Assembly (NCBI RefSeq): GCF_964355755.1
Contig: NC_092670.1
Span: 40,163,795 to 40,227,794 of the forward strand
Length of the DNA stretch: 64,000 nucleotides
From: Antedon mediterranea
Lineage: Eukaryota > Echinodermata > Crinoidea > Comatulida > Antedonidae
Reading direction: 5' to 3'
Position numbers and translations under genes: made by a program. Shown here piece after piece: positions 10,109 to 14,253 of the stretch. The notes beneath the pieces were generated by a model. It had not been told where the DNA came from. It saw only the letters and a program-made list of their open reading frames with translations, and made no database searches. The first letter of the stretch is position 1. Each line of letters begins with the position of its first letter.

Positions 10109-13100
10109 CAAAGAATTAAACATTTTCGTTTACTTTTCTTCTTTTTCTTTTCTTTTCCATTTTGTGTACTTTCTTCGGCCGCTTTCTGTTCACTTATTTT
10201 CCTCATTAAATCATAGAAAACCTAAAATTAAAAATAAATGATGATAAAATGACAACCAAAAGTCGGGACATTCTTAACATCAAATAATAGACAGAAAAGA
10301 ATAAAGATAGAAAATAGGATCGAAGATAGGAGAAAGATTTTTTTTTTTAATAGGGGAGAGAGGTGAGAAAAGAAATAAAAATTGGAAAGAGTATGTAACA
10401 GATTAAACATTCATTTCATTGCCTAATTGTTTATGCATCCATCCCACAGTTTGTAAAAACAGTGAAAAGTTGAGATTGTTATAATAGAAGAGTTTAAAAT
10501 ATTCATATAGATATTTAAGGAAAATTGTAAGGGTTTTACAAAATTGTACTGAACCTTAAAGGACAACTTGACGTATTAGGGAGGTACATAGGATTTCAGA
10601 ACAATCATGAGATTTAGGATATCGCCGCACACATTTGTGATTGTTCTGAAATCCTATACTATGTACATTCCTAATACGGTTCTCGGTCAAGTTGTCCTTT
10701 AATACATACCGTACTACATTAATGTACAACCCTTATCAACATTCTCCCTGGTACATACTACATTAATGTACAACCCTTATCAACATTCTCCCTGATACAT
10801 ACTACATTAATGTACAAACCTTATCAACATTCTCCCTGATACATACTTCATAAATGCACAACCCTTATCAACATTCTCCCTGGTACATACTACATTAATG
10901 TACAACCCTTATCAACATTCTCCCTGGTACATACTACATAAATGTACAACCCTTATCAACATTCTCTCTGATACATACTACATTAATGTACAACCCTTAT
11001 CAACATTCTCCCTGGTACATACTACATTAATGTACAACCCTTATCAACATTCTCCCTGATACATACTACATTAATGTACAAACCTTATCAACATTCTCCC
11101 TGGTACATACTACATTAATGTACAACCCTTATCAACATTCTCACTTATACATACTACATTAATGTACAAACCTTATCAACATTCTCACTTATACATACTA
11201 CATTAATGTACAAACCTTATCAACATTCTCACTTATACATACTACATTAATGTACAACCCTTATCAACATTCTCCCTGGTACATACTTCATAAATGTACA
11301 ACCCTTATCAACATTCTCCCTGGTACATACTACATTAATGCACAAACCTTATCAACATTCTCTCTGATACATACTACATTAATGTACAACCCTTATCAAC
11401 ATTCTCCCTGGTACATACTACATTAATGCACAAACCTTATCAACATTCTCTCTGATACATACTACATTAATGTACAACCCTTATCAACATTCTCCCTGGT
11501 ACATACTACATTAATGTACAAACCTTATCAACATTCTCACTGATACATACTACATTAATGTACAACCCTTATCAACATTCTCCCTGGTACATACTACATT
11601 AATGTACAAACCTTATCAACATTCTCCCTGATACATACTACATTAATGTACAACCCTTATCAACATTCTCCCTGGTACATACTACATTAATGCACACACC
11701 TTATCAACATTCTCCCTGGTACATACTACATTAATGCACAACCCTTATCAACATTCTCCCTGATACATACTACATTAATGTACAACCCTTATCAACATTC
11801 TCCCTGATACATACTACATTAATGTACAAACCTTATCAACATTCTCCCTGGTACATACTACATTAATGTACAACCCTTATCAACATTCTCCCTGGTACAT
11901 ACTACATTAATGTACAAACCTTATCAACATTCTCCCTGGTACATACTACATTAATGTACAACCCTTATCAACATTCACCCTAATACATACTACATTAAAG
12001 TACAACCCTTATCAACATTCACCCTAATACATACTACATTAATGTACAAACCTTATCAACATTCTCACTGATACATACTACATTAATGTACAAACCTTAT
12101 CAACATTCTCCCTGGTACATACTACATTAATATACAACCCTTATCAACATTCTCGCTGATACATACTACATTAATGTACAAACCTTATCAACATTCTCCC
12201 TGGTACATACTACATTAATGCACAAACCTTATCAACATTCTCTCTGATACATACTACATTAATGTACAACCCTTATCAACATTCTCCCTGGTACATACTA
12301 CATTAATGTACAAACCTTATCAACATTCTCACTGATACATACTACATTAATGTACAACCCTTATCAACATTCTCCCTGGTACATACTACATTAATGTACA
12401 AACCTTATCAACATTCTCCCTGATACATACTACATTAATGTACAACCCTTATCAACATTCTCCCTGGTACATACTACATTAATGCACACACCTTATCAAC
12501 ATTCTCCCTGGTACATACTACATTAATGCACAACCCTTATCAACATTCTCCCTGATACATACTACATTAATGTACAACCCTTATCAACATTCTCCCTGAT
12601 ACATACTACATTAATGTACAAACCTTATCAACATTCTCCCTGGTACATACTACATTAATGTACAACCCTTATCAACATTCTCCCTGGTACATACTACATT
12701 AATGTACAAACCTTATCAACATTCTCCCTGGTACATACTACATTAATGTACAACCCTTATCAACATTCACCCTAATACATACTACATTAATGTACAACCC
12801 TTATCAACATTCACCCTAATACATACTACATTAATGTACAAACCTTATCAACATTCTCACTGATACATACTACATTAATGTACAAACCTTATCAACATTC
12901 TCCCTGGTACATACTACATTAATATACAACCCTTATCAACATTCTCGCTGATACATACTACATTAATGTACAAACCTTATCAACATTCTCCCTGATACAT
13001 ACTACATTAATGTACAACCCTTATCAACATTCTCGCTGATACATACTACATTAATGTACAACCCTTATCAACATTCTCCCTGATACATACTACATTAATG

Positions 13101-14253
13101 TACAAACCTTATCAACATTCTCCCTGATACATACTACATTAATGTACAAACCTTATCAACATTCTCCCTGATACATACTACATTAATGTACAACCCTTAT
13201 CAACATTCTCCCTGGTACATACTACATTAATGTACAAACCTTATCAACATTCTCCCTGGTTTTTGCTGATGTTTCCACATAAGGAACATGCCAGCTTGTT
13301 GCTAGGTTACTAGCTTCTTCGTGACTAACTTGGCGTTTATCTTTCAAGTCAGCTTTGTTACCAACAAGCACAAACGGGATCTGTTCTTCTGTTCTATCGT
13401 GTTTTACTCTTAAAATTTGTTCTCTGCAAAAAAAAGTAAATTTGCTTCTATAGTTAAAAAGTGAATTTGGTAAATTTTCCAAAAACCCAAAGTTTGTACC
13501 GGATCCATTACAAATGTCATATAACTATTGTTGAAACCAGCTTTTCCAGAAAATCAAAACACATTTTTCAAGAATCTGTATTTACCTAAATTCTGACGTA
13601 GTTTGAAACGATTCCTGTTCAGTTATTGAGAAAACGCAGAGAAAGCCTTCTCCTGATCGGAAGTAATTATCTCGAATGGCAGCGTAGTCTTCCTGACCTG
13701 CAGTGTCCAGAATGTCTATTTGCACTTCTTCTCCGTCGAGTGTTACCTTCTTTCGGTAACTATCTGCTTTTGTAGGTTCATAGTCTTCAACAAACTAAAA
13801 ACAAATCAATAAAATATAATAAATATAAACGGACGATGGTTTAAGTTTATTCAAACATGTTTACCATTTAACATGTTTACCATTAAACATGTCTACCATT
13901 AGACATGTTTACCATTAAACATGTCTACCATTAAACATGTCTACCATTAAACATGTCTACCATTAAACATGTCTACCATTAAACATGTCTACCATTAAAC
14001 ATGTGGTTACCTTTTTAATTTTTTTTTTTTTGTAAATTTACATTCTTTTGGTTTAGTTATTAAAACATTTAGATCCAGTAATATTAAACTTTAAAAGCTT
14101 TTTTTTATTGGTGCAATGTAAATGTTTGATTATTAATTATATGTATCTTACCTCATCATACATAAACTGTAAAGTGAGTGCTGACTTTCCAACGCCACCA
14201 CTACCAACCATGATCACCTTATGGAGAGTTAGCTGTTGCTTTGGTTTAGACAT
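10108..14253 (-). CDS. RAL: Ral small GTPase
   Basis: Four coding exons on the minus strand: 14152-14253, 13586-13794, 13240-13423 and 10108-10221. They sum to 609 nt, 202 aa plus stop (human RalA has 206). Motifs: P-loop [11 protein letters not shown] (residues about 17-27), Ral-specific switch I/effector [12 protein letters not shown], switch [26 protein letters not shown] guanine-specificity motif and ETSAK. The polybasic tail KKKKKSKRK ends in a CLIL CAAX box, whose final Leu predicts geranylgeranylation and membrane anchoring. Ral acts downstream of Ras via RalGEFs and signals to the exocyst. Exon 4 opens with VFYDLMRKI in phase 0, exactly continuing exon 3 (ENVDK). Intron 3 is swollen by a 44-bp satellite. 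RalA and RalB cannot be separated; a single invertebrate Ral is most likely. Confidence 0.97.
10556..10702. mobile_element. Hairpin MITE in the last Ral intron
   Basis: A near-perfect long inverted repeat. The left arm runs TTAAAGGACAACTTGACGTA through GGATTTCAGAACAATCA; the right arm is its reverse complement, ending CGGTCAAGTTGTCCTTTAA. The loop is about 25 bases. It directly abuts the satellite array. Non-coding. Confidence 0.7.
10705..13259. repeat. 44-bp satellite array derived from the Ral exon 3/intron 3 junction
   Basis: About 58 head-to-tail copies of a 44-bp unit, TACATACTACATTAATGTAC followed by AACCCTTATC and AACATTCTCCCTGG. On the transcribed minus strand each unit reads CCAGGGAGAATGTTGATAAG then GTTTGTAC or GGTTGTAC. 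The first 20 bases equal the last 20 coding bases of Ral exon 3 (ending ENVDK), and the next bases are the splice donor. The true exon 3 end at 13240 is the outermost unit. The array therefore arose by amplifying the host exon-intron junction and fills most of intron 3. Confidence 0.95.
11408..12992. repeat. 792-bp higher-order duplication (18 x 44 bp) inside the satellite
   Basis: Variant units recur at a spacing of exactly 792 bases: TGCACAAACC at 11427 and 12219, TGCACACACC at 11691 and 12483, ACATTCACCC at 11971 and 12763, TATACAACCC at 12131 and 12923. Blocks of 18 units were therefore copied together recently. The outer limits are approximate. Confidence 0.85.
13861..14004. repeat. 16-bp tandem repeat (9 copies) in Ral intron 1
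   Basis: Nine units of TTACCATTAAACATGT / CTACCATTAAACATGT in exactly 144 bases, within the intron between coding exons 1 and 2 of Ral. Confidence 0.9.

What the first reader, a model, noticed from the sequence alone, without database searches (positions are those of the whole stretch)
10705..13423. Satellite built from a host splice-donor junction inside Ral
About 58 tandem 44-bp units in Ral intron 3 each carry the last 20 coding bases of exon 3 plus the GT donor, and the genuine exon end is the first unit. An exon-intron junction was amplified into an array, offering dozens of decoy donors. The true site must be chosen from the edge of the array. Use of any inner donor would retain 44n bases and meet the in-frame TAG a few codons into the first unit (AAG GTT TGT ACA TTA ATG TAG).
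Basis: seen in the sequence. Interest (0 to 1): 0.85.

Follow-up and report, generated by a model that had tools for sequence, protein, structure and literature searches.

The report
Minisatellite seeded from Ral splice junction
In this animal genome the end of one coding exon of the signalling gene Ral, together with the start of the following intron, is repeated 58 times in a row, so the true splice site sits at the edge of a line of look-alikes; it is probably a by-product of ordinary tandem duplication, but a useful natural test of how splice sites are chosen.

Summary
Confirmed. Ral (minus strand, four coding exons, intact 202-aa frame) carries in its 3,018-bp intron 3 an array of 58 units of 44 bp; unit 1 is the last 20 nt of exon 3 plus the first 24 nt of the intron. 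A 33-base pattern allowing 3 mismatches matched 58 places in the 354-Mb assembly, all in this array; the intron half alone matched 56, all here. The unit therefore most likely arose here, from the junction.

Two corrections. Only 25 of 57 inner copies keep GT at the donor position; 32 read GG. And it is not isolated: PDCL3 in the same window has a 95-bp two-copy duplication of an exon end plus donor, CCT eta on another contig an 85-bp one. In 76 exon loci, long-period arrays fill 3-8% of flanks but touch 1 downstream and 0 upstream exon ends: no enrichment, rather a filter.

Best reading: a near-neutral minisatellite whose first unit is coding, with the exon-adjacent donor normally used. No function is shown. 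Inner-donor use would end Ral after ...[15 protein letters not shown], relatives and reads, which would decide, were not available.

The parts
10712..13259 (-). Array of 58 x 44-bp units; unit 1 (13259-13216) is the real exon 3 end plus intron start, unit 58 is partial
13240..13423 (-). Ral coding exon 3 (184 nt); its last 20 nt are the first 20 columns of unit 1
13236..13239 (-). Start of the genuine donor, AAG|GTTTGT (phase 0)
   Evidence: assignment rests on the open frame into exon 4 and the RalA alignment
10222..13239 (-). Ral intron 3, 3018 bp
10108..10221 (-). Ral coding exon 4 (114 nt, ends CLIL-stop); acceptor TTTTAATTTTAG|GTTTTC lies outside the array
13586..13794 (-). Ral coding exon 2
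14152..14253 (-). Ral coding exon 1
10556..10702 (.). TTAA-flanked inverted-repeat element next to the distal edge of the array; related sequence is dispersed in the genome
10704..10709 (-). GTATGT just past the distal edge (ACG|GTATGT), a further donor-like site
3004..3196 (-). PDCL3: 95-bp two-copy tandem duplication of exon end plus donor; exon end read at 3134, copy at 3039; 63 exon bases identical before the first mismatch

Best explanation
A short tandem duplication crossed the 5' splice junction of Ral exon 3 and copied 20-21 coding bases and about 24 intron bases into the intron. Because the upstream copy leaves the whole exon and its donor in place, it was tolerated. It then grew by slippage or unequal exchange, in small and in large steps, to 58 copies. 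In mechanism it is an ordinary, probably near-neutral minisatellite; it is unusual because its first unit is coding sequence that is no more different from the inner units than they are from one another. Ral is normally spliced from the exon-adjacent donor. Use of any of the 25 inner GT copies would leave an in-frame stop after residue 165 + VCTLM, so a 170-aa Ral without residues 166-202, which include the C-terminal CLIL (a prenylation box, from general knowledge). SHOWN: the array, its junction content, no copies found elsewhere in this genome, its variant structure, and two more junction duplications. INFERRED: order of events, neutrality, and which donor is used.
For: Unit 1 is the junction. 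58 of 58 matches of a 33-base pattern and 56 of 56 of the intron half lie here, reversed controls 0. Unit 1 is not an outlier: mean identity 0.957 to the other 56 complete units against 0.946 over all pairs, rank 25 of 57. Block growth: a run of 13 unit types recurs exactly at a lag of 18 units (792 bp); 17 of 39 lag-18 pairs are identical, reached by 0 of 5000 shuffles. No sign that the copied exon part is preserved: pairwise diversity 0.064 in exon columns, 0.046 in intron columns. Long-period tandem arrays are common here: 3.0, 5.2 and 8.0% of flanks in three exon samples, 3.8% of the window without this array. The same event exists in two copies in PDCL3 (95 bp) and CCT eta (85 bp).
Against: 32 of 58 units share T>G at +2, which removes the junction GT, and +2 is one of the two most evenly split of 44 columns; that could be selection against decoys, although +1 G and +5 G, also important to a donor, are invariant in 57 of 57. 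The fold of exon 3 plus the next 16 x 44 nt does not favour it: true donor 0.50 unpaired, inner donors 0.36-0.69. So why the exon-adjacent site should win is not explained by these measures. No RNA, relatives or reads were available.
Confidence: 0.75

Rival explanations
1. The array is functional: its GT-bearing copies draw U1 snRNP and divert part of the transcript to a truncated, decay-prone product, so the number of live copies tunes Ral output; the GG copies are damped decoys.
For: 25 inner copies keep GT, 23 of them the same 9-mer as the true donor; the stop lies 18 nt into the intron, and the nearest GT-bearing copy, unit 3, would put the junction 70 nt after it, far enough for nonsense-mediated decay by the usual 50-55 nt rule (recalled). 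The +2 column is highly split.
Against: No difference between exon and intron columns in diversity; no RNA evidence; the same kind of duplication appears elsewhere in two copies; the large blocks of shared types fit plain expansion.
Confidence: 0.1
2. A satellite or transposon-borne repeat from elsewhere inserted beside exon 3 and matches its end by coincidence or later conversion.
For: A dispersed TTAA-flanked inverted-repeat element abuts the distal edge.
Against: No unit found outside the array; the exon end codes for a sequence shared with RalA; the element is separate from the unit.
Confidence: 0.04
3. The intron itself was created by tandem duplication of an AGGT-bearing exon segment.
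For: The unit contains AAGGT, and such intron gain is published (PMC4974935, abstract and Introduction seen).
Against: The acceptor TTTTAATTTTAG|GTTTTC lies outside the array and is unrelated to the unit.
Confidence: 0.04
4. Assembly artefact: the array, or its 18-unit block repeat, was made or inflated by the assembler.
For: A run of 13 unit types recurs exactly at lag 18; reads could not be examined.
Against: 17 unit types in a non-trivial order, unique flanks on both sides, one place in the assembly. Inflation of copy number cannot be excluded.
Confidence: 0.05

Closest known systems
Intronic minisatellites / VNTRs
   Same: Head-to-tail units of fixed period, variant types, block expansion
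   Different: The first unit is coding sequence plus the genuine 5' splice site. Papers listed showed no such case in titles and abstract starts; apart from passages of PMC12783039 they were not read
Tandem duplication across an intron-exon boundary in potato RdRp (PMC4974935; abstract and Introduction seen)
   Same: Duplication spanning one splice junction of a host gene
   Different: There the duplicated stretch crosses the boundary of intron 1 and exon 2 and a new intron arose; here the exon-to-intron (donor) side, 58 copies, no new intron
Multiple tandem duplication of a 24-bp AGGT exon segment in fission yeast (Zhu & Niu 2013, seen only as cited in PMC4974935)
   Same: Short AGGT-bearing unit repeated several times within a gene
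   Different: Exonic source, and introns run across the duplicates; here a junction source inside an existing intron
Reporters with duplicated 5' splice sites (recalled, no paper seen)
   Same: Several like donors compete for one acceptor
   Different: Natural, with 26 GT-bearing junction copies in series

Membership tests
Minisatellite | Head-to-tail units of roughly 10-100 bp, highly alike | tested here: met
   44 bp x 57.9 copies, 94% matches, 0% indels
Minisatellite | Copy-number variation between individuals (VNTR) | not testable with these tools
   one assembly only
Dispersed satellite family | Copies elsewhere in the genome | tested here: not met
   58 of 58 and 56 of 56 pattern matches lie in this array, at up to 3 and 2 mismatches; more diverged copies would be missed
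[quoted passage not shown]
   the acceptor lies outside the array
[quoted passage not shown]
   no relatives of this genome are held
Tandem exon duplication | Each copy brings acceptor, exon and donor | tested here: not met
   units hold only 20-21 exon bases and not the exon 3 acceptor
Regulated decoy-donor intron | Inner donors are used in RNA and kept by selection | not testable with these tools
   no RNA or relatives; diversity of exon and intron columns gives no sign of selection

The most novel reading that the evidence does not exclude
The coding end of Ral evolves in concert with a minisatellite: the exon edge is itself a unit of the array and is homogenised with it, and the mixture of live (GT) and dead (GG) donor copies sets how much full-length Ral is made.
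Probability: 0.1. Interest if true: 0.75.

Novelty: new variant of a known kind. Interest (0 to 1): 0.45.

Why it matters
Donor choice among like 5' splice sites is usually studied in constructs. Here a conserved signalling gene carries 26 GT-bearing junction copies, 24 of them with the same 9-mer, in front of one acceptor, so RNA from this animal would show directly whether exon definition, order or strength decides. It also shows that coding bases can be part of a minisatellite, so that unequal exchange in an intron can reach a protein-coding edge, and that junction-spanning duplications recur in this genome.

Tried and rejected
Considered and rejected: a satellite arriving from elsewhere; a second Ral locus as source (one search lists 50 matches; outside the window none exceeds 61% identity); the intron born from the repeat; the inverted-repeat element as carrier (it abuts but shares no unit); RNA structure exposing the true donor (no); units as micro-exons (considered only; no test run). 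Enrichment of arrays at donors was tested and not found.

Led nowhere: paper searches for a junction-spanning minisatellite or competing identical donors (no relevant case in the listings, which I did not read beyond) and for the species (0 papers). The organism was not identified.

Limits of the exon sample: 30 of 56 CCT, 30 of 140 kinase and 16 of 24 proteasome matches listed, the best-scoring ones; loci overlap (262,074 bases, about 211,152 unique); a Pfam match end is not always the exon end, and several kinase matches cover the domain in one frame, so not every end is a splice junction. One search flagged repeats at six loci: L029 is a junction duplication; L061 a larger duplication that made an extra exon-like copy; L010, L038 and L077 were read and judged not to span a donor; L070 (29 bp, about 920 bp apart) was not read.

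Full report
Gene and array. On the minus strand the window holds a Ral gene: coding exons 14253-14152, 13794-13586, 13423-13240 and 10221-10108, all with GT and AG at the inferred intron ends, giving an uninterrupted 202-residue protein. Its best match among solved structures is RalA (2bov, E 5.9e-95), where the exon 3 end reads TRANVDK against TRENVDK here. The exon-by-exon genome search listed 50 matches; outside the window the best is a 52%-identical frame on C5 and none exceeds 61% identity, so no second Ral was found. Intron 3 is 3018 bp, of which the array takes 13239-10712.

Units. 58 units follow one another with 57 spacings of exactly 44 bp. Unit 1 is the last 20 nt of exon 3 and the first 24 nt of the intron; one more exon base matches in 4 of 4 units checked. 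The distal unit matches over 40 of 44 bases and is followed by a TTAA-flanked inverted-repeat element (10556-10702; arms of 17 nt, 100% complementary) whose relatives are dispersed: 73 matches with 40 of 201 candidates scored.

Origin. A 33-base pattern across the junction, up to 3 mismatches, has 58 matches in 354,431,138 bases, all in this array, reversed control 0. The intron half alone, up to 2 mismatches, has 56, all here, control 0. The tool warns that counts may be lower bounds. Since the exon end encodes a stretch shared with RalA, the direction is exon to array.

History. There are 17 unit types among the 57 complete units. A run of 13 types recurs exactly at lag 18 (792 bp); 17 of 39 lag-18 pairs are identical, reached by 0 of 5000 shuffles. 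Unit 1 is identical in all 44 bases to 8 other units and ranks 25 of 57 in mean identity to the rest (0.957; all pairs 0.946): the exon edge is not an outlier. Diversity is 0.064 in exon columns and 0.046 in intron columns, so there is no sign that the copied coding part is preserved. Each unit holds a 12-bp palindrome, TACATTAATGTA, almost wholly paired in the predicted fold; it may help slippage, which is conjecture.

Donors. Junction 9-mers: 24 AAGGTTTGT (one the true site), 2 AAGGTGTGT, 32 AAGGGTTGT. So 25 of 57 inner copies keep GT and 32 do not. Positions +1 G and +5 G are invariant in 57 of 57, which speaks against a general purge of donors, though +2 is one of the two most evenly split columns. 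In a fold of exon 3 plus the next 16 x 44 nt the true donor is 0.50 unpaired and the others 0.36-0.69. Neither strength nor fold singles out the true donor; order along the transcript or exon definition must do so if it is the one used, and this is inference.

Consequence of a wrong choice. Read-through gives ...[12 protein letters not shown] and a stop ending 18 nt into the intron. Unit 2 is a GG unit, so the nearest inner GT is in unit 3: 88 nt retained, junction 70 nt after the stop. By the usual 50-55 nt rule (recalled) such transcripts would be open to decay; the product would be 170 aa, without residues 166-202.

Not isolated. In the same window PDCL3 (best match phosducin-like protein 3, E 1.1e-82) has a 95-bp two-copy tandem duplication: 63 exon bases, the donor GTATGT and following intron. 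On another contig, CCT eta (best solved matches CCT eta; NCBIfam chap_CCT_eta is the top model but below its whole-protein cut-off, as expected for one exon) has an 85-bp two-copy duplication spanning its donor. In both, as in Ral, the upstream copy is the working exon end, and the frame read from the exon meets a stop in the intron copy. In another CCT locus (L033) a 44-bp x 7 array starts 6 nt before a donor, too little exon to be sure. In a kinase locus (L061) a larger duplication repeats exon end, intron and acceptor.

How common. In 76 exon loci (30 of 56 CCT, 30 of 140 kinase and 16 of 24 proteasome matches) arrays of period 25 or more cover 3.0, 5.2 and 8.0% of flanks and 0.8, 0 and 0% of matched exons; 1 of 76 downstream ends and 0 of 76 upstream ends are touched, where coverage alone would give roughly 4 each. 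So junction arrays are not enriched; duplications seem to land anywhere and to survive mostly outside exons. That a donor-spanning duplication survives better than an acceptor-spanning one is suggested by 3 against 0 cases, too few to prove, and the Ral and PDCL3 cases were found by reading this window rather than by sampling.

Verdict. The likeliest account is a local, near-neutral minisatellite that happens to include a coding edge. Its interest lies in the natural contest among donors and in a coding edge that behaves as part of a minisatellite. Comparison with print is limited to the searches named, the abstract and Introduction of PMC4974935 and passages of PMC12783039.

Noticed in passing
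window 3004-3196: PDCL3: 95-bp two-copy tandem duplication of exon end plus donor, about 98% identical
   Followed up: yes
L029:1394-1575: CCT eta: 85-bp two-copy duplication of exon end plus GTAAGT donor; three further tandem arrays in the same locus (periods 87, 30 and 90)
   Followed up: partly
L033:741-1042: A CCT gene on C7: 44-bp x 7 array that begins 6 nt before a donor; several units read as TTCAG or TTTAG followed by GTAAA
   Followed up: partly
L061:2162-2738: Kinase gene: tandem duplication of exon end, intron and acceptor giving a second exon-like copy
   Followed up: partly
L081:1-814: 44-bp x 18.5 array near a proteasome exon, unrelated in sequence to the Ral unit; it reaches the end of the locus
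   Followed up: no
window 13853-14004: 16-bp x 9.5 array in Ral intron 1, not at a junction
   Followed up: no
window 27633-28053: 63-bp x 6.7 array, 98% matches; the period is a multiple of 3, leaving open frames of over 120 codons
   Followed up: no
window 21427-23250: Exon-like frames matching CD225 (interferon-induced transmembrane family), both over the Pfam cut-off
   Followed up: no
window 46152-46880: Reverse-transcriptase frame (RVT_1, E 2.7e-23) of a retroelement
   Followed up: no
sampled loci and window: Many long-period tandem arrays have periods near 40-46 or 82-90 bp; not tested statistically
   Followed up: no
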